Shown one piece after another: positions 5,989 through 17,448 of a stretch of DNA of 18,751 nt. A program made the position numbers and the translations under genes. Source of the DNA: Acidithiobacillus sp. Its GTDB lineage: Bacteria > Pseudomonadota > Gammaproteobacteria > Acidithiobacillales > Acidithiobacillaceae. The notes below the pieces were generated by a model. That model did no database searches. It saw nothing but the letters and a program-made list of their open reading frames with translations, and was not told where the DNA came from. How positions within the stretch are numbered: the stretch's first letter is position 1; each line of letters starts with the position of its first letter. The stretch spans positions 1 to 18,751 of the forward strand of contig JAPTWR010000136.1 of the NCBI GenBank assembly GCA_028065135.1, in the 5' to 3' direction.

Positions 5989-6384
5989 TCACCGGGGACG
6001 GAATACCAAAGCGCGAGAAGCGGTGAAATTGAATACGAGGCCAGCCAGGGAACCTGCGGCAACCGCCAGAACGGGTTCTTTTGAGAACATCACTATGGTC
6101 AAAACCAAAAGCGCATATACCCCATTATTGACCACCGCGCCAACGGAGTTGGCCGCCACATAATGCAGCCACTCCCGCAACCAGTGGGGGCTGGCGTGGT
6201 GGGCGAAGGTGAACCGCCGGTTCAGTAGCCAGGTCACGGTCACCGCCACGGTAAAGGCGACAGCCTGTGCGGTGAGGGGATCTACACCCGCGCTGGTGAA
6301 TGCCCATACGATGCTGGCGTCCACGAGGAATCCTGCCACACCGGCAAGAGAAAAAAGGAAAAACTCGGTTTTCGGTGAACGCAT
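5989..6384 (-). CDS. gtrA: GtrA-family membrane protein (lipid-linked sugar flippase candidate)
   Basis: This 131-residue, four-helix membrane protein matches the GtrA family in length and layout. Helix 1 contains LAGVAGFLVDASIVWAF, followed by the conserved VTVTWLLNRRFTF segment, then LHYVAANSVGAVVNNGVYAL and a final helix ending FNFTASRALVF. GtrA proteins are thought to flip undecaprenyl-phosphate-linked monosaccharides across the inner membrane for serotype conversion or cell-wall glycan glycosylation. A GtrB-like synthase and a YfhO-like GT-C enzyme lie just upstream in the same operon, completing the expected trio. A truncated GT2 fragment sits immediately upstream with 2 bp spacing. The ribosome binding site is weak, so translation may depend on coupling. 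Confidence 0.9.
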   Translation of the reverse strand: MRSPKTEFFLFSLAGVAGFLVDASIVWAFTSAGVDPLTAQAVAFTVAVTVTWLLNRRFTFAHHASPHWLREWLHYVAANSVGAVVNNGVYALLVLTIVMFSKEPVLAVAAGSLAGLVFNFTASRALVFRPR

Positions 6385-6386
6385 GA

Positions 6387-6659
6387 CTAACTCACCGGCT
6401 CATCCGTGCTACCAGCAGTATGGCCGTTTGGTTCCAGTGGCGATGGATAAGCACTATATTGCAGATAGGCGAACATCTTCGCCTCTCGCCGCCCGCGCGA
6501 AACCGTGTCGAGAATAAGCCCGGTCATAATACTCAAAAACGCTACCAGCATAATTCCCATAGCCAAAACTGCAGTTGGAAGACGCATTACCAAACCCGTT
6601 TGCAAGAACAGGAGTACCACCGGAATAGCTAGGACTAATGAAATCGACATCAATATCAT
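6387..6659 (-). pseudogene. C-terminal fragment of a DPM-like GT2 glycosyltransferase
   Basis: The 90-residue ORF has two hydrophobic helices separated by TGLVMRLPTAVLA and followed by LILDTVSRGRREAKMFAYL. That arrangement is the C-terminal membrane anchor and tail of polyprenyl-phosphate GT2 glycosyltransferases (DPM1/DPG-synthase-like, about 300-330 residues). Reading upstream past the ATG at 6659, the same frame continues with CFSLIG, also family-like, up to about 6680. There it meets the end of gtrB in another frame. No catalytic GT2 domain (DxD, NDGS) is present. The remnant is best explained by replacement of an original GT2 gene's body by the incoming gtrB. It could still make a small membrane protein, since the frame is intact and closely followed by gtrA, but no glycosyl transfer is expected. 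Confidence 0.7.
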
Positions 6660-6679
6660 CCCGATTAATGAAAAGCAGC

Positions 6680-7678
6680 TTACCTTGGAGGAGGCGCGTC
6701 CATTTCGGACCCTGTGGGAAGGGCGGCGCCCGCCCCGGCGCCTGGATCGTCCAGCTCCCGGATTATATAGATGGGGCGGTGCTTGCTCTCCTCGTAAATA
6801 CGCCCAACGTATTCCCCGATCACTCCCAGCGCCATGAGCTGCACCCCTCCGAGGAACAGAATGGCCGCCATCATGGAAGGGTAGCCCTTAACTGGATTGC
6901 CGTAAAGCAGGGTGGCCACCACCAGATAGGCGGCGTAGAGTAGGGAGAGCAAAGATACCAGCAAACCGAGCCAGGAGGCGATCTGGAGCGGTACCTGACT
7001 AAAGGAGGTAATTCCTTCCAGGGCAAAGTTCCACAGCCGCCACCAGTTGAACTTGCTTTTCCCGGCGTGGCGCGGCTCGCGCTGATAATAGACCTCCGCC
7101 GTGCGAAATCCCACCCAGGCGAAAATGCCTTTCATAAAGCGCCTGCGCTCCGGCAAACGGCGGATGGCCTCCAGCGCGGGGCGCGAAATGAGCCGAAAAT
7201 CGCCGGTATCCGCGGGAATGTCGACATGGGTAAGGCGGTTGATCACGCGGTAGAATCCATGGGCTGTTGCCCTTTTCAGCCAGCTCTCCCCAGCGCGGGA
7301 GCTACGCACGGCATTGACGATGTCAGATCCTTCGCGCCACTTGGCGAGCAATTCGGGAATCAGTTCCGGCGGGTCTTGCAAATCGGCGTCAAAAGGGATC
7401 ACCGCGCTGCCTCGGGCATGGTCCAACCCGGCGGTGAGGGCGGCTTCCTTACCAAAATTGCGGGAAAGGTCCAACACCCGTACCCGCGGGTCACGATGGC
7501 GTAAGGCCAGCAGCTTTTCCAGGGTGCCGTCGCTGCTGCCGTCATTCACGCAAACGATTTCCCACGCGCAATGGGTTGTATCCAGCACCGTGGCGATGCG
7601 CTGGTACAGAACATCCACATTGCCCGCCTCATTGTAAAAGGGGATGACCATGGAGATGACGGGAAGGCGTGGGTTCAT
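6680..7678 (-). CDS. gtrB: GtrB-like undecaprenyl-phosphate glycosyltransferase (GT2, DPM-like)
   Basis: The 332-residue protein has a GT2 catalytic domain plus two C-terminal membrane helices, the usual GtrB/CsbB design. It would transfer a sugar from a nucleotide donor to undecaprenyl phosphate at the cytoplasmic face. Visible motifs are ISMVIPFYNE at 8-17, VNDGSSDG at 44-51, the metal-binding PFDADLQDPPE at 95-105 (D97, D99), and the helices around WLGLLVSLLSLLYAAYLV and MMAAILFLGGVQLMALGVIG, then the typical VGRIYEESKHRP end. The start at 7678 is supported by GGAGGA 9 nt upstream and by the ATGA overlap with the YfhO-like gene. A longer in-frame start exists at 7768 but lies inside that gene. 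The GtrA gene two positions downstream is the expected partner. Confidence 0.92.
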   Translation of the reverse strand: MNPRLPVISMVIPFYNEAGNVDVLYQRIATVLDTTHCAWEIVCVNDGSSDGTLEKLLALRHRDPRVRVLDLSRNFGKEAALTAGLDHARGSAVIPFDADLQDPPELIPELLAKWREGSDIVNAVRSSRAGESWLKRATAHGFYRVINRLTHVDIPADTGDFRLISRPALEAIRRLPERRRFMKGIFAWVGFRTAEVYYQREPRHAGKSKFNWWRLWNFALEGITSFSQVPLQIASWLGLLVSLLSLLYAAYLVVATLLYGNPVKGYPSMMAAILFLGGVQLMALGVIGEYVGRIYEESKHRPIYIIRELDDPGAGAGAALPTGSEMDAPPPR

Positions 7679-10419
7679 GTCGGCGAGTCCTCCGTAGGCT
7701 CCTTCTTGCCCGGCAAGGATCTCCACCAGGCGAGGGCCGCCCATCCCAATCCCGCCACTCCCAACCAAAAGGCGATCCAGGCGTAGCCTGCATAGGGCGG
7801 AGCGAAGCGGAAGCGGACCATATTGTTTCCTGCGGGCAGAGGGATGACCTGAAAGATCTTGTCATGGGCGGATACCGCCGTGCTCGCCCCATCCACCGTG
7901 GCGGTCCAGCCGGGCATGAACAATTCCCGGCGCAGCAGGGTGGCGGATGTCGCGCAATGGGCTTCGACGCTATCGCGCTGTTGCCCGGAAAGGGTGCATT
8001 GGCCTCTGAGCACCGTATAGTAGGGCGCGGGGTTGGGTAGCTCCCAAATATCCATAAGGGCGTCGGAATAGACTTTGCGAACGCCGGTCGCGGCACCGCC
8101 ATATTCCAGGGAAAGCTGGAGGGCCTTGCTGGATAGGGGTCCCTGCGGACCGGTGATTCTCTGCGTATAGCTGGGGGCTTGCGGCCAGAGCCAGAGGGCT
8201 TCGGGGCGATTGCCGCCAACGTGTGAGAGGGTAACGGTCAAGGCCTCCCCCGGCTCGACCCGCAGAGAGTGCGCGAGGGGGATAGAAAACACGCTGTTGT
8301 CCCTCGATTCCGACAAGGGTCTGCTGCCAGCGACACAGCCATGGGCAGCCGAGCAGATCTTGATAGCCAAACTTCCGTTGGCGGTATTGCCGTAGTTGCC
8401 CTGGAATATGCCTACCCCATTGATCGACTCTTTGCTTTTCCATCCGGTCGGCACGGCAAAGGCGACCTCCGCCGATTGCCCGGCCAACAGCGGGAGCGGG
8501 GTGTTGCTTGCCTTGCCCGCCGGGATAGTTACAGAGGGAACCAGGCTTTGGCCGCTGTCGGTAATTAAATAGCGAACTCCGACCTTCTCATAAGCATGAA
8601 TCCTATTCAGGATAGTTTGAGTGGTGTTGCCGGGATACCAAGCTGGCCAGAAAATCACGCCAGTTGTTTTCGTTATATCGGGGAAGAGATTCCTGGCGAC
8701 ATAATGCTCCCAGTTGGTTGCGATGGGGAGATAGTTATAATTCAAGCTCGGTATATTGAAGTAGGCCGAGTAATTGGGCTCGATAGGCCCTATAGTAAAA
8801 AAACGATTGGTTCCAACATGTTTCTTCAGAAACTGAACGGCGCTCTCATCTACGTCGCCCGGTTTGACTGCGGAAAGTTCAGGGATCATATACAATATCG
8901 AGGCGTTCAACACGATCAGAGCTGCGAGCAAGCGTCTTCTCTTTTCGCCATGCAGAAATTTCCATACGAGGATCAGGACTACCAATCCAAGTAGAGTCGC
9001 GCTCCAGTTTACGATGAATAGAATTTTCAGTTTGTGCATTAATTCAGGTGACCAATGGTCGAGAGGCTGCCACGGCCAGTTGGTATATACGGAGAACCCC
9101 AATAAACCTGAACAGAGGAGTGTTGGCCATAGGATGGATCGCGCACGAAAGCGCAGATCTTCCAATGCAAAAGCCGCGAGCACAATCACAGCAAACTCCC
9201 AGCTCGGTGGTGAGTAGCGGAAAAACTCTGCATCAACCAATAATGGGATATGGTTCATGATAACCATCACCGGCTGTATTCCGAAGGATTTGGCGAGGGC
9301 GATGACAATCCATCCAGCTAATATTATTTTCAGGCCTCTTTCCCGTTTTCCTGTCAGTCCGTAGATAGCTATGAAGATAAGTAAAATGCCCAGATAACCT
9401 CCGGTTCCTCCCCAAATTTCGGAGATAAAACTGCTACCATGCGAATCTGCAGAAGGTCCATATAGGTAAGGCATGAAGATGGTCGAAAATGCCTGCAATG
9501 GTAAAAATGCATGCCCCAATTGATGAGCGCCGAGTGCCGTTGAACTCAGCAGATAATCAATGAAAGCGACGGTGATCGGTGCCGCAAACAACAAGCCAAT
9601 TATCCCTCCCGTGGTTACCCGGAGCCCGAATCGCCAGCGCCAACCATCTGCAGTATAACGGTAAATAGCCCAAAGGAGAGCCAACAGGCCGTTGATGAAA
9701 GCTTCCTCGGGAAAGCCCGCATATAATGAGCCGGCAATGGCCATTGCTATCCAGAATATACCGAGGGCGCCTTGCTCTTGTTTCCGGGACTTTTCAATGC
9801 CGTAAAGCAATAAAGGCAAAAAAGCGATGACATTGAGTACGGATATGGTCCCAGGCGTCCATGCAAAGGTACCATTCATTTCAAACAATATGGCGGCAAA
9901 CAGTGCACTCGTACGGGACAAGCCCAATTCACGGATCAATGCAAAAGTAGCGAACCCCGCCATGATTTCCATGGTGATTTTAAGCCAAAGAACGCCGTTG
10001 GGCAGTAACAGCCAAAATACGAAGGGCAAAAAGAAAGCGTTAGGCTGCATTTCCCCTGCAAGGGGTAACCCTATGCCTGAATAAGGATTCCACCAGGGAA
10101 TAATGCCATGCATCCAGTCCTGGGCCGCCAGGTGCCCCAGGGCTTGTGTTGTCCAACCAAAATTCGGATCACCATAAGATAAACCAGCCAAAGGACCTGG
10201 TTGGACAGCAGCAGTTATCCATGCTTGCTGCCAAATAGGATTGATGCTCAATCCAAAAATAAGGAGCGGTAATTCCACCAGAAAAGGCAGCAGGATTAGA
10301 AAAATGATCGGAACCCAAGGACGATGATCAAACCATTCCGGATCTGCGGTTTTGGCGGGTGTTTCCTGAGTTTTTTCCCCGCCGTCCGACCGAAACTGCT
10401 CCGCTTCCCAGAGGCTCAT
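7675..10419 (-). CDS. YfhO-like GT-C membrane glycosyltransferase with inserted C-terminal module
   Basis: The 914-residue protein has roughly a dozen membrane helices from about residue 35 to 535, a long presumably periplasmic region (~535-875) and a last helix (~878-902). The first periplasmic loop carries YGDPNFGWTTQALG and IPWWNPYSGIGLPLAGE, the characteristic loop of YfhO-type GT-C enzymes; its Asp is the likely catalytic residue by family analogy. The tail PGWTATVDG..VIPLPAGNNMVRFRFAPP is also typical. Such enzymes transfer a sugar from a polyprenyl-phosphate carrier to an exported glycan. Residues ~639-775 form a module shared with the upstream 1370-residue protein (GNYGNTANG near 673-681). 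I start at ATG 10419, which overlaps the preceding stop (TGATG) and has GGAG ~8 nt upstream. It overlaps gtrB by ATGA. GC is lower in the membrane half than in the C-terminal part. Confidence 0.85.
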   Translation of the reverse strand: MSLWEAEQFRSDGGEKTQETPAKTADPEWFDHRPWVPIIFLILLPFLVELPLLIFGLSINPIWQQAWITAAVQPGPLAGLSYGDPNFGWTTQALGHLAAQDWMHGIIPWWNPYSGIGLPLAGEMQPNAFFLPFVFWLLLPNGVLWLKITMEIMAGFATFALIRELGLSRTSALFAAILFEMNGTFAWTPGTISVLNVIAFLPLLLYGIEKSRKQEQGALGIFWIAMAIAGSLYAGFPEEAFINGLLALLWAIYRYTADGWRWRFGLRVTTGGIIGLLFAAPITVAFIDYLLSSTALGAHQLGHAFLPLQAFSTIFMPYLYGPSADSHGSSFISEIWGGTGGYLGILLIFIAIYGLTGKRERGLKIILAGWIVIALAKSFGIQPVMVIMNHIPLLVDAEFFRYSPPSWEFAVIVLAAFALEDLRFRARSILWPTLLCSGLLGFSVYTNWPWQPLDHWSPELMHKLKILFIVNWSATLLGLVVLILVWKFLHGEKRRRLLAALIVLNASILYMIPELSAVKPGDVDESAVQFLKKHVGTNRFFTIGPIEPNYSAYFNIPSLNYNYLPIATNWEHYVARNLFPDITKTTGVIFWPAWYPGNTTQTILNRIHAYEKVGVRYLITDSGQSLVPSVTIPAGKASNTPLPLLAGQSAEVAFAVPTGWKSKESINGVGIFQGNYGNTANGSLAIKICSAAHGCVAGSRPLSESRDNSVFSIPLAHSLRVEPGEALTVTLSHVGGNRPEALWLWPQAPSYTQRITGPQGPLSSKALQLSLEYGGAATGVRKVYSDALMDIWELPNPAPYYTVLRGQCTLSGQQRDSVEAHCATSATLLRRELFMPGWTATVDGASTAVSAHDKIFQVIPLPAGNNMVRFRFAPPYAGYAWIAFWLGVAGLGWAALAWWRSLPGKKEPTEDSPT

Positions 10420-13400
10420 CAACCGCTCTCCTGCACTTGCAGTTCAATCCGCAGCGCCCGATCCTCATGGCCCGGTATCTGATGCCCCCAGCGATCATTC
10501 AAGGTGTAAACCCAGAACGCCACTGGGTGAGTGGCGCCTTCCAGACGGAGGTGGAAAAATAGTCGATCCTGCCCCTGCAAAGAAATCTCCCCTTGGGTGA
10601 GGGGCATTGGCAGCATAGCGTTATCTTGCGAGCCATCCAAGACGCTATGGGCATATGCGCTGTGCCCGTCACTATCTTGCAGATGCAGAACCAATGTCCC
10701 GTTGGACGCTCCGCCATAGTTGCCTATCAATATCGATATCCCGGTGAGCATTCCACGAATCCCCACGGGTATGGGGAAGCTGCCTTGGAACTCTTCACCG
10801 GGCGTCAAGGCCAATGGTTCTGTCCTCCCGTGGAGTATGCCATAGGGGACATCGATGATGGCCGGTTCCTGACGCCACGGATGCTGACCCCTTGGCGGCC
10901 ACGCCAGGGAGAAATCCTCCCGTTCGAGGGTGAGGTTGGGGTTATAGGCGGGATCGCGCTTCAGCCATTCCCCCCAGCGCCATTGCATATAGGCATGTTC
11001 CAGTGCAAATCGCTGTAATTTTTCAGGATGAACATCACTGCCGCGGGACTTGGACTCATGATGATAGAGCAATACGTGCGGGAGCCAAACATTGCGTAGA
11101 CCTGCTTCCTGCAAGCGCAGACAAAGGTCCACGTCATTGAAAGCCACCGTGAGTTCAGAAGCCATGCCGCCCACCTGATCCCAGTGGCTTTTTCGTATCG
11201 TCAAACAAGCCCCGGTAACGGCGCTAAAGTTTTGTACCAAGGCGGCACGGCCAAAGTGGCCGCAAGAATCTTTCGGAATGTTTTTATGTGCGTGGCTTGC
11301 GATTCCACCCAAACCCAGAATTACTCCGCCATGTTGAACCGCGCCATCGGCATAGAGCAATTTCGCCCCCACCGCCCCCACCCCTTGACGCTGCGCCTGT
11401 CCAAGCATTTCGTTCAACCATTGCGGTGTAATAACTTCGGTATCGTTGTTCAATAGACAGACATATTCACCGTTCGCCCGAGGCACGGCCCAATTGTGCA
11501 TGGCCGCATAATCGAATGGATATGGATAAGGCAATACCCGATAGCCTGGCCGATGTTGGATCTCGGCGAGGTAAGCCAGCGCGTCGGCATCGTCGCTTTG
11601 ATTGTCAACAACCAAAATTTCGGCATAGGGATATTCATTAAGATTCAGGCTATTCAGGCATTGGCGAAGATCAGAAAGACCGTTCCGAGTAGGAATAATG
11701 ATGCTTATTTTTGGAGTGCCATTTACAGAGAATCTGGGTAAATGAAACGCGCTATTGCAGGCGCCGTCCAGAAAAAATGTCTCTCCGCGCCGTTGCAGAC
11801 TTTCGGTAATCGCCATCTTTGCTGCGTTGACCACATAAGGTTTGGCGGACAAATCACTGGCCGTAGAGCCGTCGAGTATCCGCCAATGATACAATACGGC
11901 AGGAATATGACGGATTTTATCAGGAGGAAGATCCTCCGTAAAACGGAGCACCAAATCCCAATCCTGACTGCCTTCGAATCCCTGACGGAACCCACCGTAA
12001 CGCAAAACACGGTCTTTTTTGTAGACGCCTAGATGACTTATGTAATTTTGGCCGAGAAGAAGTTCAGGGTTCCAGTCGGGCTTGAAGTAAGGATCGCAAC
12101 GGCGATCTTTTTCGCTGATCTTGTCTTCATCGCTATAAAGGAGCTCCGCTTCCGGGTGGGCCATGATCTCCGCTGCCATCCAGTAGAGGGCATGCTCGGC
12201 GAGCGCATCGTCATGGTCCAGCAGGGCGACATAGTCGCCAGTAGCAACTTCCAAGGCGCTGTTGGAGGCTGCGGAAATATGACCGTTTTGCTCCCGGAAA
12301 ACCACCTTGATGCGGGGATCCTTGCGCGCATATTCCTCCAACACTCTGCGTACATGAGGCAACGGTGAGGCGTCGTCGGCGATGCACAGTTCCCAGTGAG
12401 GATAGATCTGAGCACGCACCGATTCGATAGCCTTGCGCAAGAATTTCTCCGGTGGGTTGTAGGTGGGCATTACCACGGAAAAGATAGGCGGCTTGGTGAA
12501 GGATGCGATGTGGGTACGTATGTCAGCGCGGTCCGTATCTGTCAATATGTCATATTGCCGGATCCACGTCTCGTAATCACTGCGAGTCTGCCCAGTGAGT
12601 AGCCGTTTGGCGGGGTTGCGCAGCGCGCGCTTGACCCTGCCCGGAAGGGGGGTGTGGTGGTAGAGCGTACGGGCAAAGGCATAGCGATGTTCATGGCCTT
12701 GTTTTCCAGGAGTCAACAATAACCGGCTAGTCCGTATACTGGCACGAAGGGTGCAAGCAGTAATGCGTAGGGGTTTGGTCATCTTCCAAGAGTGGGAACC
12801 TAATATGGACTCCAGCTCCGTGGCCAGACACTGGTTTTGTTCTTCGGCAGACTGCAACGCTGCGGTCAGTTCACCCGTCCGCACCTCGTTTGACTGGTGC
12901 ATGGACTCCAGCTCTGTGGCTAGGCGCTGGTTTTGGTCTTCGGCAGACTGCAACGCTGCGGTCAGTTCACTCGTCCGCACTTCGTTTGACTGGTGCGTGG
13001 ACTCCAGCTCCGTGGCCAGACGCTGGTTTTGTTCTTCGGCGGCCTGTAGCGCTGCGGTCAGTTCACCCGTCCGCACCTCGTTTGACTGGTGCATGGACTC
13101 CAGCTCTGTGGCTAGGCGCTGGTTTTGGTCTTCGGCAGACTGCAACGCTGCGGTCAGTTCACTCGTCCGCACTTCGTTTGACTGGTGCGTGGACTCCAGC
13201 TCCGTGGCCAGACGCTGGTTTTGTTCTTCGGCGGCCTGTAGCGCTGCGGTCAGTTCACCCGTCCGCACCTCGTTTGACTGGTGCATGGACTCCAGCTCTG
13301 TGGCTAGGCGCTGGTTTTGCTTCAGGAGATCCTCCCACTCTTCTTGAACCGCCATGTAATCTGCGGACATGGGCCACGATAGCTCTACCTCCAGATGTTC

Positions 13401-14531
13401 GGCTCGGGAAAGTATCTCGGGGGGTACAGGTAGTTCCAGCCACGGATCCTCGTCCAATAGGGACAGCACCACGCCTTCCTCCCCGGTCTTCAGCGGGGCC
13501 GGGAAGATGCCGTGCAGTGTTCCACGGAGCAGTGTTTCGACATCGCCATCCCAGGTCCAGAGACAATCAGCGCCATCAAGCAGACGCATGGCATACAAGC
13601 GCAGAAACCCCTTCCGGTCGGAAGGATCGAACCGGAGCGCCTGCACCAACCCTTTGGGGAACGTGAAATGTACGCGCTGCCGATCTAGCCCGATGGGCAG
13701 AAGGATGCGTTCACTACGGGTTTCGGTAAAGAGTTCGTCATTACTGTGCCAAAAGACCTGACAAGCGAAACGCGGCCCATGTGATACCGCCTTATCAAGA
13801 GGGAAAATAGGCGTAACATTTTCTCCTAACTCTTGAGGATAGGCCTCAACGATAAACTGATAGGTAATGCTGTCATCCCAATCCTGCATTTCCCGCAGCA
13901 ACGACGGGCTGATGATTTCCATGGGGATGGTAGAAAATTCTGAATATTGAAGATCGACTATGGTGCGGTCTACTACCTGCCCGGCAAACCCATTTTCAGC
14001 TAAAAGGTATAGGAAACTACGCCGGGTAAAAAAACGCAGATGGGTCCGGTCGAGTAATCCTTCCTCGCGGTACCGGAAGTCGCCGGACAGTAATTCCAGG
14101 AAGACGCCGATATGCCCAATGTTGGGTATGGAAATGAGGATTTTGCCATCAGGCGTCAGATGATCCTTTAGCCGTTGGAGCACCTGGCCCGGATCCCGCA
14201 GGTGTTCCAGCACGTCCGCACAAACAATTCGGTCATAGCGTGCCCCTTCCATTAGCTGCCGAAGATCGGCAGATTCCAGGTCGGTGACCATGATCCGACG
14301 GTAAAAGGGCCGGGCAATTTTGGCGGCCTCGACATTCCCCTCGATTCCATCGACGCTACAGTTTTGTTGCTCGGTGAGGTATTGGCCTAGCACACCCACT
14401 GCGCAACCCACGTCCAGTACCGTGCTGTCGTGTGGAATGCGTCGGGCGATCTTGGCCAAGCTATCCTCAGCATTCGGATCAAGTGGGGGGCGGGAATACA
14501 GGTGTTGCTGTGTCCCTGTTTCGGTAGTCAT
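10419..14531 (-). CDS. Methyltransferase / coiled-coil repeat / double GT2 glycosyltransferase megaprotein
   Basis: This 1370-residue protein has five parts. (1) Residues ~10-210 are a SAM methyltransferase: VLDVGCAVGVLGQYL, CADVLEHLRDPG, and LLDRTHLRFFTRRS. (2) Residues ~215-390 are a probable beta-rich region with LRFDPSDRKGFLRLYAMRL, seen beside other glycosyltransferases. (3) Residues ~395-585 are a coiled coil of 32-residue repeats, ending in SHSWKMTKPLR, a motif often linking such coils to GT2 domains. (4) Two GT2 domains follow: ~675-905 (FSVVMPTYN, LLDHDDAL, YSDEDKI) and ~935-1190 (ISIIIPTRNG, LLNNDTEV, FNDVDLCLRLQEAG). (5) Residues 1239-1370 form the module shared with the next gene (GNYGGASNG). 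Double-GT2 proteins typically polymerise rhamnose- or mannose-type chains. ATG 14531 overlaps the sulfotransferase stop (ATGA). The repeat region makes long false ORFs on the other strand. Confidence 0.88.
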   Translation of the reverse strand: MTTETGTQQHLYSRPPLDPNAEDSLAKIARRIPHDSTVLDVGCAVGVLGQYLTEQQNCSVDGIEGNVEAAKIARPFYRRIMVTDLESADLRQLMEGARYDRIVCADVLEHLRDPGQVLQRLKDHLTPDGKILISIPNIGHIGVFLELLSGDFRYREEGLLDRTHLRFFTRRSFLYLLAENGFAGQVVDRTIVDLQYSEFSTIPMEIISPSLLREMQDWDDSITYQFIVEAYPQELGENVTPIFPLDKAVSHGPRFACQVFWHSNDELFTETRSERILLPIGLDRQRVHFTFPKGLVQALRFDPSDRKGFLRLYAMRLLDGADCLWTWDGDVETLLRGTLHGIFPAPLKTGEEGVVLSLLDEDPWLELPVPPEILSRAEHLEVELSWPMSADYMAVQEEWEDLLKQNQRLATELESMHQSNEVRTGELTAALQAAEEQNQRLATELESTHQSNEVRTSELTAALQSAEDQNQRLATELESMHQSNEVRTGELTAALQAAEEQNQRLATELESTHQSNEVRTSELTAALQSAEDQNQRLATELESMHQSNEVRTGELTAALQSAEEQNQCLATELESILGSHSWKMTKPLRITACTLRASIRTSRLLLTPGKQGHEHRYAFARTLYHHTPLPGRVKRALRNPAKRLLTGQTRSDYETWIRQYDILTDTDRADIRTHIASFTKPPIFSVVMPTYNPPEKFLRKAIESVRAQIYPHWELCIADDASPLPHVRRVLEEYARKDPRIKVVFREQNGHISAASNSALEVATGDYVALLDHDDALAEHALYWMAAEIMAHPEAELLYSDEDKISEKDRRCDPYFKPDWNPELLLGQNYISHLGVYKKDRVLRYGGFRQGFEGSQDWDLVLRFTEDLPPDKIRHIPAVLYHWRILDGSTASDLSAKPYVVNAAKMAITESLQRRGETFFLDGACNSAFHLPRFSVNGTPKISIIIPTRNGLSDLRQCLNSLNLNEYPYAEILVVDNQSDDADALAYLAEIQHRPGYRVLPYPYPFDYAAMHNWAVPRANGEYVCLLNNDTEVITPQWLNEMLGQAQRQGVGAVGAKLLYADGAVQHGGVILGLGGIASHAHKNIPKDSCGHFGRAALVQNFSAVTGACLTIRKSHWDQVGGMASELTVAFNDVDLCLRLQEAGLRNVWLPHVLLYHHESKSRGSDVHPEKLQRFALEHAYMQWRWGEWLKRDPAYNPNLTLEREDFSLAWPPRGQHPWRQEPAIIDVPYGILHGRTEPLALTPGEEFQGSFPIPVGIRGMLTGISILIGNYGGASNGTLVLHLQDSDGHSAYAHSVLDGSQDNAMLPMPLTQGEISLQGQDRLFFHLRLEGATHPVAFWVYTLNDRWGHQIPGHEDRALRIELQVQESG
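12805..13319 (-). repeat. In-frame 96-bp tandem repeats (192-bp higher-order unit) coding a coiled coil
   Basis: Five full 96-bp units (12805-12900, 12901-12996, 12997-13092, 13093-13188, 13189-13284) and a 35-bp partial unit (13285-13319) lie inside the megaprotein gene. Units alternate between two types. By eye, 12901-13092 is identical, base for base, to 13093-13284, so the recent duplication unit is 192 bp. Each 96-bp unit codes 32 residues of the form NQRLATELES(M/T)HQSNEV, then RT(G/S)ELTAALQ(A/S)AE(E/D)Q. Thirty-two residues equal three heptads plus one 11-residue stretch, so a continuous coiled coil can tolerate unit gain or loss. Unit length is a multiple of three, so copy-number change keeps the frame. 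These are not CRISPR repeats: units abut without spacers. Confidence 0.97.
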
Positions 14532-15556
14532 AACGAGTGATCCCGCGACGCCAGAACGATGCCATAAGCATGGTCGACCAATCGGTGAATTTCAGAACGA
14601 CGGCGCAGATACTCCTTGTCCATGCGCACCCCGTAGGGGAGAATGCCGTGCCCGCGCAACGGGTTGAGTGAGACGCGGCAATGTTCATGCAGAAATTTTT
14701 TGGAGCGGCGGAATCGCACCGAAAACCGTAGGATATCCCAGCGGCTTGGGACGGACATTTTATCGGCATGCGCTCCGGCTTCGGTTGTCGCGGAGAGAAT
14801 TGCCTCCGTGTTGCGGCCTCTTTCCCTGTCGTCGGTTCCGTTGTCTCTGCTCATCTGATTAAGCCTCAGCAATGCCAGGCCGGCAACCATGTCGATGGAC
14901 TCGTTGGCCGCAACCACCCGCTCCAGTTCGTTCTCCAGATCCTGCAAGCCGATCAGCTTCACAAACTTCGGTTCGATCGGAACCTCGAATCCGTTACAGT
15001 GGACATGATGTTTTTCAAATACATTGGCGAAGCCTAGCGCAATCCTCTCATAGTGGAAGCAAAATCGCCAGTTACCCCGCATCACGAATATGCCGTTATC
15101 GAGGATCCGCTTTTGGAATACGCGAAAGGATAAATCCAGACCATGCTTCAGGAGTTCTCCATACAAGGAAATAATATATTCACCCCACTCCCGGAAGAAT
15201 ACGATCACTTCCACTTGGCATCCGACATCGTTCAAACGGTGTTTCAGCGCTACCAGGGCTTCTGGTCTGGAATAGAGGTATTCAAAGTCTTCTGAGGAAA
15301 CTACCACAGTATGGCAATCTGACCCGCTGATTTCTGCGCACAGATCGTCCAATGTGCCGTAGCCGCCCTGGAAGCGATGATCGTCATTCAACTCCCAGGC
15401 GATGTTATGATGCCCGCTGTTTGGATCTATGCAGCCGGAAACGGGTATCAACACTCCGCGTTCCTGCAGGCGTTGCTTGTTGACCCTTAAAAAGTGCTGT
15501 AACGCCGTTGTTCCGGTTTTGTGTGTTCCTATATGTAGAAAACACTTTTTATTCAC
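14528..15556 (-). CDS. Sulfotransferase-like protein (PAPS-dependent P-loop fold)
   Basis: The 342-residue protein begins KKCFLHIGTHKTGTTALQHFL, the 5'-phosphosulfate-binding loop (about residues 8-17) of the PAPS-dependent sulfotransferase fold. A second family feature is VIVFFREWGEYIISLYGE near residues 117-134, where the Arg and Ser would bind the 3'-phosphate of PAPS. The VVVSSEDFEYL strand near 85-95 also fits. It probably sulfates a sugar in the exported polysaccharide, acting in the cytoplasm; the acceptor is unknown and many relatives are annotated only as hypothetical. The start is GTG at 15556 with AAGGA 9 nt upstream. It overlaps the megaprotein gene by ATGA. It follows the ABC transporter pair after a 121-bp AT-rich gap and may head its own transcript. 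Confidence 0.75.
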   Translation of the reverse strand: MNKKCFLHIGTHKTGTTALQHFLRVNKQRLQERGVLIPVSGCIDPNSGHHNIAWELNDDHRFQGGYGTLDDLCAEISGSDCHTVVVSSEDFEYLYSRPEALVALKHRLNDVGCQVEVIVFFREWGEYIISLYGELLKHGLDLSFRVFQKRILDNGIFVMRGNWRFCFHYERIALGFANVFEKHHVHCNGFEVPIEPKFVKLIGLQDLENELERVVAANESIDMVAGLALLRLNQMSRDNGTDDRERGRNTEAILSATTEAGAHADKMSVPSRWDILRFSVRFRRSKKFLHEHCRVSLNPLRGHGILPYGVRMDKEYLRRRSEIHRLVDHAYGIVLASRDHSL

Positions 15557-15677: not shown

Positions 15678-16427
15678 TCAAAGTACGGCCAGACAGCGTG
15701 CGGACTCCTTTGGGTCTTGCTGCAGTCGCCCCGTTTCCACCACCCGACCATACTCCAGCCGCACGAACTGGTCGCAGAATTTGTTGACCTGTTCCCTGCT
15801 ATGGGACACCAGGATGAGCGTCATGCCATTGCGTCGCAGTTCGGCAATTTTATCGTGGCATTTATCCTGGAACGCCTGATCCCCTACGGCGAGGATCTCG
15901 TCGGCCAGGAGGATGTCTGGGTCGAGATGAGCGGCCACGGAGAACCCCAGGCGCATCTGCATGCCGGAGGAGTAGTTCTTGAGCGGGGTATCGATGAAGT
16001 GGGCCAGTTCCGAGAACTCGATGATGCCCTTGAGGCGCTTCTTGACGTCACAATTGCGGAAGCCGTAGAGGCTGGCGTTGAGGAAGATGTTTTCCATCCC
16101 CGTCAGCTCGGGATTGAAGCCGACACCCAGTTGAATCAAGGGCGCAATGCGGCCATGAGTCACTACCCGACCCGCAGTAGGCTGGAGGATTCCGGCGATG
16201 ATCTGTAGCAGGGTGCTTTTGCCGGAACCATTGTGCCCCAATAGACCCAGTGCCTCCCCCTGTTCCACGGTGAAACTCACATCGTGGAGCGCCTGGAAGT
16301 GTTCTCTGCGTTCACGCTTGCCCTTATGAAACAGCGCCAGGAATCGCGTTTTGAGCCCCATTGCGCGATTATGGCGGAGGACAAACTCCTTGGAAAGGTG
16401 TTCGACGATGACCGCATGATGGGTCAT
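15678..16427 (-). CDS. wzt: Polysaccharide ABC transporter ATP-binding protein (Wzt/KpsT-like)
   Basis: The 249-residue protein powers export of a lipid-linked polysaccharide with its permease partner. It shows Walker A GHNGSGKST at 64-72, the polysaccharide-exporter feature LIQLGVGFNPELTGMENI at about 97-114, signature YSSGMQMRL at 152-160, Walker B ILLADE at 172-177 and switch His in LVSHS near 209. It ends soon after the nucleotide-binding domain. The extra ~150-200-residue C-terminal carbohydrate-binding domain found in Wzt of E. coli O8/O9a is absent, so export would not depend on Wzt recognising a terminal modification. ATG 16427 has GGAGGA 10 nt upstream, inside the end of the permease gene; the two genes are 3 bp apart. 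Confidence 0.93.
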   Translation of the reverse strand: MTHHAVIVEHLSKEFVLRHNRAMGLKTRFLALFHKGKRERREHFQALHDVSFTVEQGEALGLLGHNGSGKSTLLQIIAGILQPTAGRVVTHGRIAPLIQLGVGFNPELTGMENIFLNASLYGFRNCDVKKRLKGIIEFSELAHFIDTPLKNYSSGMQMRLGFSVAAHLDPDILLADEILAVGDQAFQDKCHDKIAELRRNGMTLILVSHSREQVNKFCDQFVRLEYGRVVETGRLQQDPKESARCLAVL

Positions 16428-16430
16428 GTT

Positions 16431-17243
16431 TTAGAGTTCCTCCACCAGCATGCGGGCTTTGCGGCGGAAGAGCGTCATACCGACGGCGAGCGAAACCAGG
16501 GTCCATACTCCGGCAGCGAGTACATTGCTCCATTGGGGCAAAACCCCTTGGTAGAGCAGGGCGTGAAAGAGATCAAAAAATTGGGTCAGTGGATTCAGAC
16601 CAATAATCGCCTTAAAAAGAGCGGAATGTATGGTGGTGGGATCGTAGACCACGGGCGTCAACCAAAATAGAAACATCATGGCAATTTCGACCATATGCTT
16701 GAGATCCCGAAACTCTACCTGAAGGACGGACATAGCCAGAACCAAACCCCAAATAAAGGCAATGTAGAGCAGCAGCGCGAAGGGATATAAGAGCAGCCCC
16801 CAGTGGTAGACCCCGCCCAGGAAAGGATACAACGCCACCAGTACGAAAATAGCTACTGCCCATAACACCAGATTGAACAACAGGCTGGCCGTAGGAATCA
16901 GGATGCGCGGAAAGTAGATCTTCTGCAGAAGGCCGGAAGCGCCCGTCAGACTCTCACAACTTTGAGTGATGGTCATGGCAAAGAGATTGTAGTGAAGGAC
17001 ACCAACAACTAGATACAGCACATAGTTTTGTAGTGCTGTACGAAATATATGCGTAAAAACAATATCATATAGCACTATGAGAGCGAGTGGATTCCCCAAT
17101 GACCAGAGAAATCCCAAAGCGGCACCTTGGTAGCGTACCTTGAGATTCATGGTAACGAGGTTGCGCACCAAGTCACGGTACTGCCAGTAACGGGCAAAGC
17201 CGACGGCGGAGGCGCTGGACGGAGCGATGGTGCTGGTCTGCAT
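16431..17243 (-). CDS. wzm: Polysaccharide ABC transporter permease (Wzm-like)
   Basis: The 270-residue inner-membrane protein has about six membrane segments and the ABC-2 polysaccharide-exporter layout: an amphipathic N-terminal YRDLVRNLVTMNLKVRYQGA, then LGFLWSLGNPLALIVLYDIVF, and later VEFRDLKHMVEIAMMFLFWL with TPVVYD. It forms the channel that moves the lipid-linked glycan, driven by the adjacent ATPase. ATG 17243 is chosen over an upstream TTG at 17279. Neither has a well-placed ribosome binding site (an AGGA lies 15 nt upstream of 17243), so the start is uncertain by 12 codons. It is the first gene of the minus-strand cluster and is divergent from the GT4 gene at 17449. Confidence 0.92.
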   Translation of the reverse strand: MQTSTIAPSSASAVGFARYWQYRDLVRNLVTMNLKVRYQGAALGFLWSLGNPLALIVLYDIVFTHIFRTALQNYVLYLVVGVLHYNLFAMTITQSCESLTGASGLLQKIYFPRILIPTASLLFNLVLWAVAIFVLVALYPFLGGVYHWGLLLYPFALLLYIAFIWGLVLAMSVLQVEFRDLKHMVEIAMMFLFWLTPVVYDPTTIHSALFKAIIGLNPLTQFFDLFHALLYQGVLPQWSNVLAAGVWTLVSLAVGMTLFRRKARMLVEEL

Positions 17244-17448
17244 GAGCGGGATTGTGCGTCCTGCCGCGGGGCTGGTCAATAGTGCATCTAATGAAGTTCA
17301 CGGGGTGAAGGAGTATGCTCAAACTTCACGCTAGCCAGAGGGCAGGTGTTGATTGATGAAAATGACCATCTGGCGAAAAAGATTTGCAACGATCTCGGCA
17401 TTCCCTATGCCATAGGGTCCGGTGTCCCCATTTCTGGTGGAGAATGAC
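17244..17448. promoter_or_regulatory. Divergent intergenic region with inverted repeats
   Basis: This 205-bp gap lies between the divergent wzm and GT4 genes and should hold promoters for both. I see no convincing sigma70 promoter on either strand; a weak plus-strand candidate is TTGCAA (17384-17389), 16 bp, TATGCC (17406-17411). A perfect 7-bp inverted repeat with one central base, CCCTATGCCATAGGG, occupies 17403-17417, about 32 bp before the GT4 start and over that weak -10. A second inverted pair, TGAAGTT (17292-17298) and AACTTCA (17322-17328), lies nearer wzm. Either could be an operator, but this is inference from position and symmetry. Confidence 0.4.

What the first reader, a model, noticed from the sequence alone, without database searches (positions are those of the whole stretch)
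10419..14531. Candidate single-chain 'molecular ruler': methyltransferase, repeat-built coiled coil and double GT2 in one protein beside an ABC exporter
The sequence shows a SAM methyltransferase domain, a ~190-residue coiled coil made of tandem repeats, and two GT2 domains in one chain, cotranscribed with a sulfotransferase-like gene and close to wzm/wzt. In E. coli O9a, WbdD (kinase-methyltransferase) caps the chain and its coiled coil acts as a ruler that sets O-antigen length together with polymerase WbdA. Here the cap-type enzyme, the coil and the polymerase-type domains would be fused, and the coil length would be set by the number of 32-residue units (about 4.8 nm each at 0.15 nm per residue). 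The ruler role is inference; coiled coils next to GT2 domains are not rare.
Basis: partly seen in the sequence, partly recalled or inferred. Interest (0 to 1): 0.75.

Follow-up and report, generated by a model that had tools for sequence, protein, structure and literature searches.

The report
Sugar-chain polymerase with repeat-built ruler
A probable acid-loving bacterium carries one large protein that seems to build a surface sugar chain and cap its end, with a rod of copied 32-residue blocks between the two jobs; this kind of protein is known, but the changing number of blocks and the missing cap reader on the exporter are unusual.

Summary
It follows wzm and wzt, as in Acidithiobacillus relatives.

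The fusion is not new. Klebsiella O7 ORF6 (methyltransferase-kinase, coil, two GT2), O12 WbbB and Geobacillus WsaE are published.

Two things are unusual. First, coil length changes in whole units among relatives: 14 of 17 proteins are 1 mod 32, from 65 to 257 residues. Two pairs are identical outside the coil and differ by exactly two or three units; assembly error is not excluded. Second, the exporter Wzt is 249 aa with no cap-reading domain, whereas published capped systems need one. Two sister loci have a polymerase without cap enzyme after wzt, so the cap is probably not an export ticket here.

Best reading: methyl-capping polymerase whose coil spaces cap site from polymerase. The ruler role remains inference. 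New variant of a known kind.

The parts
10419..14531 (-). 1370-aa fusion: methyltransferase, beta-sandwich, repeat coil, GT2, GT2, C-terminal sandwich
13827..14492 (-). SAM methyltransferase head, residues 14-235
13353..13781 (-). beta-sandwich between head and coil, residues 251-393; possible carbohydrate-binding module
   Evidence: AF2 strands 254-386; same domain by HMM in 55 of 120 homologues; sugar binding is inferred
12795..13361 (-). helical coil, residues 391-579
   Evidence: AF2 helices 391-483 and 518-578
12805..13319 (-). 96-bp tandem repeat that encodes the 32-residue coil units
   Evidence: TRF; units compared at DNA level
12714..12794 (-). basic amphipathic segment after the coil (residues 580-606), possible membrane-contact helix
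   Evidence: hydrophobic moment, and net charge +2 to +5 over the 18-residue windows; membrane role inferred
11730..12542 (-). first GT2 domain, residues 664-934
10917..11714 (-). second GT2 domain, residues 940-1205
   Evidence: Pfam; AF2 model
10422..10901 (-). C-terminal beta-sandwich, residues 1211-1370, shared with the YfhO neighbour
   Evidence: HMM match to the YfhO protein, E 1.1e-12; AF2 strands
14528..15556 (-). sulfotransferase-like protein, 342 aa
   Evidence: 37% identity over 138 aa to the N-terminus of P0079; no family or PDB hit
15678..16427 (-). Wzt, ABC exporter ATPase, 249 aa, without C-terminal carbohydrate-binding domain
16431..17279 (-). Wzm, ABC exporter permease
   Evidence: Pfam ABC2_membrane; NCBIfam galactan permease, below its cut-off
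7675..10422 (-). YfhO-type membrane protein that carries the same sandwich as the fusion's C-terminus
   Evidence: Pfam YfhO; HMM
6680..7768 (-). GT2, perhaps of GtrB kind
   Evidence: Pfam Glycos_transf_2; GtrB reading is from context only
5989..6384 (-). GtrA-type membrane protein
   Evidence: Pfam PF04138, E 1.9e-22

Best explanation
It is a single-chain polymerase and terminator for an ABC-exported surface polysaccharide, perhaps rhamnose-containing. The two GT2 domains at the membrane extend a lipid-linked chain. The N-terminal methyltransferase, held away by the coil, methylates the non-reducing end once the chain is long enough to reach it, and that stops growth. The head sandwich probably binds the chain. 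Coil length follows the number of 32-residue units (equal to 3 heptads plus 1 hendecad, so register can be kept); each adds about 4.75 nm, and the window's coil is about 28 nm. Export by the short Wzt does not require the cap. Shown: the domains, the repeat units, length differences in whole units, the gene order, the absent Wzt domain. Inferred: substrate, end-methylation, spacing, length control, uncoupled export.
For: Domain order and folds. Foldseek's best hits to the tail are two-domain polymerases, K4 chondroitin polymerase and heparosan synthase. Residues of the SAM loop and acidic residues of both GT2 domains are invariant or nearly so in 54- and 53-row alignments (their catalytic roles are recalled). 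wzm-wzt-fusion order kept in L001 and L003; rmlA, C, D, B upstream in L001. Heads and tails swap around the coil: the double GT2 tail occurs with methyltransferase, sulfotransferase-type or no head, and the same head occurs on RgpF/WsaF-type tails. Coil length differs in whole units, in two pairs with nothing else changed. The same architecture was tested in Klebsiella O7 ORF6, and a single-chain form in WbbB.
Against: [quoted passage not shown] L044 has a similar short Wzt with an 844-aa polymerase that has no head and only about 50 residues before the SxSW motif; L016 likewise has an 830-aa polymerase after a wzt cut by the contig end. In A. ferrivorans the head match next to wzm-wzt (G002:C81) lies in an open frame of only 199 aa, and the tail is on another contig; not followed up. 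WsaE methylates independently of chain length in vitro. The first periodicity tests of the coil did not beat shuffles (0.166 and 0.57); a second, with another scale, gave a weak 0.031. The AF2 model is a monomer with a low-confidence gap in mid-coil. Copy-number differences could be assembly errors.
Confidence: 0.52

Rival explanations
1. The methyltransferase decorates sugars along the chain and the coil is a flexible or oligomerising tether. Chain length is set by the ratio of exporter to polymerase, as in Klebsiella O2a, whose Wzt also lacks the domain. Repeat number drifts neutrally.
For: Short Wzt; PMC11231755 says O2a length follows exporter:synthase stoichiometry with a CBM-less transporter. 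L044 and L016 have no head on the polymerase. Units differ even between otherwise identical proteins.
Against: In the tested relatives (O7 ORF6, WbbB, WbdD) the enzyme at the far end of the coil is a chain terminator. The unit is kept at 32 residues in 14 of 17 proteins, although tandem duplication alone would also keep it.
Confidence: 0.33
2. The unit-number differences are assembly artefacts: collapse or expansion of an exact 192-bp repeat. The coil length is really fixed.
For: Window and P0001 are identical outside the coil, and the window's extra block is an exact copy.
Against: At protein level P0038's four units all differ and P0023 has six distinct units of seven. Lineages with diverged heads and tails also differ in unit number: P0001 against P0002 and P0004 against P0005.
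Confidence: 0.1
3. The sulfotransferase-like neighbour adds the true end cap and the methyltransferase acts elsewhere, or the two compete as alternative caps.
For: Sulfotransferase-type N-terminal parts are fused, through a different helical stretch, to the same kind of double GT2 tail in P0021 and P0024 (Pfam) and, read by eye, in L045. A relative of the window's own gene is fused to such a tail in P0079.
Against: In L001 and L003 no such gene lies between wzt and the fusion. The gene matched no family.
Confidence: 0.05

Closest known systems
Klebsiella pneumoniae O7 ORF6 (PMC11231755; abstract, passages and part 1 of 2 of the Discussion seen)
   Same: N-terminal methyltransferase, an Ig-like module, central coil, two C-terminal GT2 modules, wzm/wzt cluster; rhamnose precursor genes in its cluster (here in L001, not in the window)
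   Different: O7 has a kinase domain and caps with methyl-phosphate; here there is no kinase-sized domain. The paper says all terminated examples have a Wzt with a carbohydrate-binding module (O7's own Wzt was not checked); the window's has none. No tandem-repeat coil is described in the parts seen.
WsaE of Geobacillus stearothermophilus (PMC2943079; passages seen)
   Same: Methyltransferase plus two rhamnosyltransferase domains in one chain, overlapping wzm, wzt and wsaE genes, rml genes in the cluster
   Different: No coil is mentioned in the passages seen and its sequence was not compared. [quoted passage not shown]
WbbB of Klebsiella O12 (as described in PMC11231755; its own paper was not held)
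   Same: Polymerase, coil and terminator in one polypeptide
   Different: Its terminator is a Kdo transferase, not a methyltransferase
WbdD of E. coli O9a (PMC3482155 and PMC5082667; passages seen)
   Same: Methyltransferase head on a long coil; coil length changes chain length there
   Different: Polymerase WbdA is a separate protein, and WbdD has a kinase. The O8 homologue is methyltransferase-only.

Membership tests
Coiled-coil chain terminators of ABC-dependent polysaccharides (WbdD, WbbB, O7 ORF6 kind) | Terminating-enzyme domain at the far end of the coil | tested here: inconclusive
   A methyltransferase fold is there at residues 14-235; that it terminates chains is not shown
Coiled-coil chain terminators of ABC-dependent polysaccharides (WbdD, WbbB, O7 ORF6 kind) | Extended coil between terminator and polymerase | tested here: met
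   Helix predicted over 391-483 and 518-578; an oligomeric coil is not shown, periodicity tests weak or negative
Coiled-coil chain terminators of ABC-dependent polysaccharides (WbdD, WbbB, O7 ORF6 kind) | Polymerase modules next to the coil's membrane end | tested here: met
   Two GT2 domains right after the coil; polymerising activity is inferred
Coiled-coil chain terminators of ABC-dependent polysaccharides (WbdD, WbbB, O7 ORF6 kind) | Wzt with C-terminal cap-binding domain | tested here: not met
   Wzt is 249 aa and has no Wzt_C match; Wzt_C found in 1 of 29 genomes of the family
Coiled-coil chain terminators of ABC-dependent polysaccharides (WbdD, WbbB, O7 ORF6 kind) | Coil length sets chain length | not testable with these tools
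   Needs polymer sizing of unit-number variants
Methyltransferase-kinase terminators (WbdD O9a, O7 ORF6) | Kinase domain | tested here: not met
   Only a ~140-residue beta-sandwich lies between methyltransferase and coil; no kinase family match
WsaE | Methyltransferase plus two GT domains making a rhamnan, with rml genes | tested here: inconclusive
   Domains match; rmlA, C, D, B lie beside the ortholog in L001 but not in the window; no direct comparison with WsaE was made

The most novel reading that the evidence does not exclude
A chain-length ruler that evolution tunes by changing the copy number of a 96-bp tandem repeat, each unit adding one register-keeping 4.75-nm rung. It works in a system that caps its chain without the exporter reading the cap, so measuring and capping have been separated from export licensing.
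Probability: 0.3. Interest if true: 0.7.

Novelty: new variant of a known kind. Interest (0 to 1): 0.48.

Why it matters
The ruler model for surface sugar chains rests, as far as I read, on a few enterobacterial systems and engineered coils. Here the databases hold a series of coils of about 60 to 257 residues, most in 32-residue steps, and two pairs of proteins that differ only in unit number. If these are real, sizing the polymer of each would test the ruler directly, in a single-chain enzyme. The missing cap reader also asks what a cap is for when the exporter cannot see it.

Tried and rejected
Kinase domain between methyltransferase and coil: rejected, that stretch is a beta-sandwich.

Cap-binding domain moved from Wzt into the fusion: profile comparison of either sandwich with an alignment of five Wzt C-terminal parts gave probabilities under 1%, so there is no support. 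It is not excluded, because the structure lists were filled by the methyltransferase and GT2 domains.

Cap-binding domain elsewhere in the genome: Wzt_C was found in 1 of 29 family genomes (G026, beside a different cluster) and in 0 of the 3 genomes of L001-L003. These genomes may be incomplete.

Coil periodicity: the first test, with a standard hydropathy scale, was not better than shuffles (fractions 0.166 and 0.57). A second test on 27 distinct units from 14 proteins, with a hand-made core scale, ranked harmonic 9 (period 3.56) first of 16, shuffle fraction 0.031. This is weak and followed a failed test.

Second large protein of the family (20 loci L052-L071, 1146-1813 aa): matches mainly in one GT2 region; three were read, by eye without a repeat coil; set aside.

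Viral contigs: no relative. Plasmids: one record, 6% of the query. Papers: a search for ruler, coiled-coil, tandem repeat, polysaccharide and chain length together found none; this covers open-licence PMC papers only.

Full report

WHERE IT IS. Close relatives lie in Acidithiobacillus ferriphilus (L001) and A. ferrianus (L003), with a headless tail in A. ferrivorans (L002). wzm and wzt directly precede the fusion in L001 and L003, as in the window, where the sulfotransferase-like gene is inserted. In L001, rmlA, rmlC, rmlD and rmlB lie upstream of wzm, which points to dTDP-rhamnose as a donor there.

COIL LENGTH. I measured from the end of the sandwich motif to the SxSW motif after the coil. 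Of 120 homologues listed plus the window, 22 had both borders recognised, and 17 of these carry the NQRLATEL-type unit. Coil lengths are 65 (five proteins), 97 (four), 129 (two), 161, 193 (window) and 257: 14 of 17 equal 1 mod 32. The exceptions are 60, 79 and 107. Window and P0001 have 100% identical heads and tails and differ by exactly two units; P0038 and P0090 are 100% identical outside the coil and differ by three. P0038's four units all differ from one another and P0023 has six distinct of seven, so simple collapse is less likely there. But the window's extra block is an exact 192-bp copy, and several relatives are MAGs or unnamed. A 32-residue unit equals three heptads plus a hendecad, so added units can keep the coil register (inference).

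MODULE SWAPS. By HMM over the 120 homologues: 17 have methyltransferase, sandwich, double GT2 and C-terminal sandwich; 18 have the double GT2 and C-terminal sandwich with no recognised head; 8 have another N-terminal part before that tail, of which P0021 and P0024 match sulfotransferase families and P0079 matches Methyltransf_24. Five (P0023, P0038, P0083, P0090, P0102) have the same methyltransferase and sandwich on a tail with RgpF and WsaF domains, by the precomputed Pfam and my own scan of P0038. The remaining rows have further arrangements. The coil is the joint where heads and tails are exchanged. This fits the view in PMC11231755 that terminator and polymerase modules are variably distributed. 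P0079 begins with a relative of the window's sulfotransferase-like protein.

THE EXPORTER. The window's Wzt is 249 aa and has no Wzt_C match; the same holds for L001 (249 aa) and L044 (250 aa), and L003's Wzt is of similar length. Wzt_C occurs in 1 of 29 genomes of the family. In a sample of 398 genomes of the phylum, 29, G003 among them, had a match to the head at E 1e-25 or better, most to its methyltransferase part alone; I fetched loci from 8 of these 29, three of which (L101-L103) match the whole head. Four of the 8 loci (L101, L102, L103, L106) had a Wzt in the stretch; the other four showed none. All five Wzts of those four loci had a Wzt_C match: two clearly above the curated cut-off, one just above, one at it and one below it. 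L106 has a more distant head without the sandwich. PMC9445017 (passages) states that transporters without the domain fail to export capped chains, and PMC11231755 that all terminated examples have it. Acidithiobacillus thus joins a cap-type head to a cap-blind exporter. In L044, with an 81% identical short Wzt, the polymerase has 844 aa, starts about 50 residues before the SxSW motif and has no head. L016 shows an 830-aa headless polymerase after a wzt that is cut by the contig end. In A. ferrivorans a head piece in a 199-aa open frame lies by wzm-wzt while the tail is on another contig. The simplest reading is that export does not depend on the cap. A stand-alone head elsewhere in those genomes was not excluded.

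HOW IT PROBABLY WORKS. GT2 domains at the membrane extend a lipid-linked chain; the methyltransferase, held off by the coil, methylates the end when it can reach it; growth stops; the short Wzm/Wzt exports the chain. Under this reading the window's coil is about 28 nm and one unit about 4.75 nm; PMC5082667 gives about 20 nm for WbdD. The order of events, the end-methylation and the length control are inference from the tested relatives. The main rival is that length depends on exporter-to-polymerase ratio, as in Klebsiella O2a, and that the head only decorates.

AFTER EXPORT. The gene row continues with YfhO, a GtrB-like GT2 and GtrA, which resembles the three-component systems that add side-chain sugars outside the membrane (PMC11127046, passages). 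The YfhO protein carries the same C-terminal sandwich as the fusion (E 1.1e-12). PMC11127046 describes a backbone-binding module in a GT-C enzyme, so both proteins may bind the same chain (inference).

NOVELTY. The fused architecture is published. In the listings and the passages I read, I met no ruler coil built from tandem repeats of variable number, and no methyltransferase-coil-polymerase fusion served by a Wzt without the cap-binding domain. Only the first of these was searched for directly, and only in open-licence papers. Subscription papers, including the original ruler and WbbB papers, could not be read.

Noticed in passing
7675-10422 and 10422-10901: The YfhO membrane protein and the fusion's C-terminus share a beta-sandwich (E 1.1e-12), although they may work on opposite sides of the membrane; it may bind the polymer backbone.
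   Followed up: partly
5989-10422: GtrA, a GtrB-like GT2 and YfhO form a likely three-component set for adding side-chain sugars after export.
   Followed up: partly
L001:11815-17744: In A. ferriphilus the genes after the fusion look like a UbiA-type prenyltransferase near decaprenyl-phosphate phosphoribosyltransferases, an FAD oxidoreductase, a DprE2-like reductase (below that model's cut-off) and a protein with the shared sandwich, as for pentofuranose side chains.
   Followed up: partly
P0021, P0024, L045, L046, P0079: Sulfotransferase-type heads (L045 and L046 by eye) fused to a double GT2 tail, perhaps sulfate-capping versions; no sulfate-capped coil system was met in the passages read.
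   Followed up: partly
L012 (G002:C81): In A. ferrivorans a head piece 87% identical to residues 1-150 lies in a 199-aa open frame next to wzm-wzt, with the tail on another contig: a broken or split fusion, or an assembly break.
   Followed up: no
L051:5431-6654: The only Wzt with a cap-binding domain among 29 family genomes (G026), next to a 1237-aa glycosyltransferase.
   Followed up: no
L052-L071: Many genomes of the family hold a second large GT2 protein (1146-1813 aa) with varied N-terminal parts, at the 20 loci fetched.
   Followed up: no
12751-13666, plus strand: The 96-bp repeat leaves long open frames on the opposite strand (198 and 258 aa); these look like a by-product of the repeat, not genes.
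   Followed up: no
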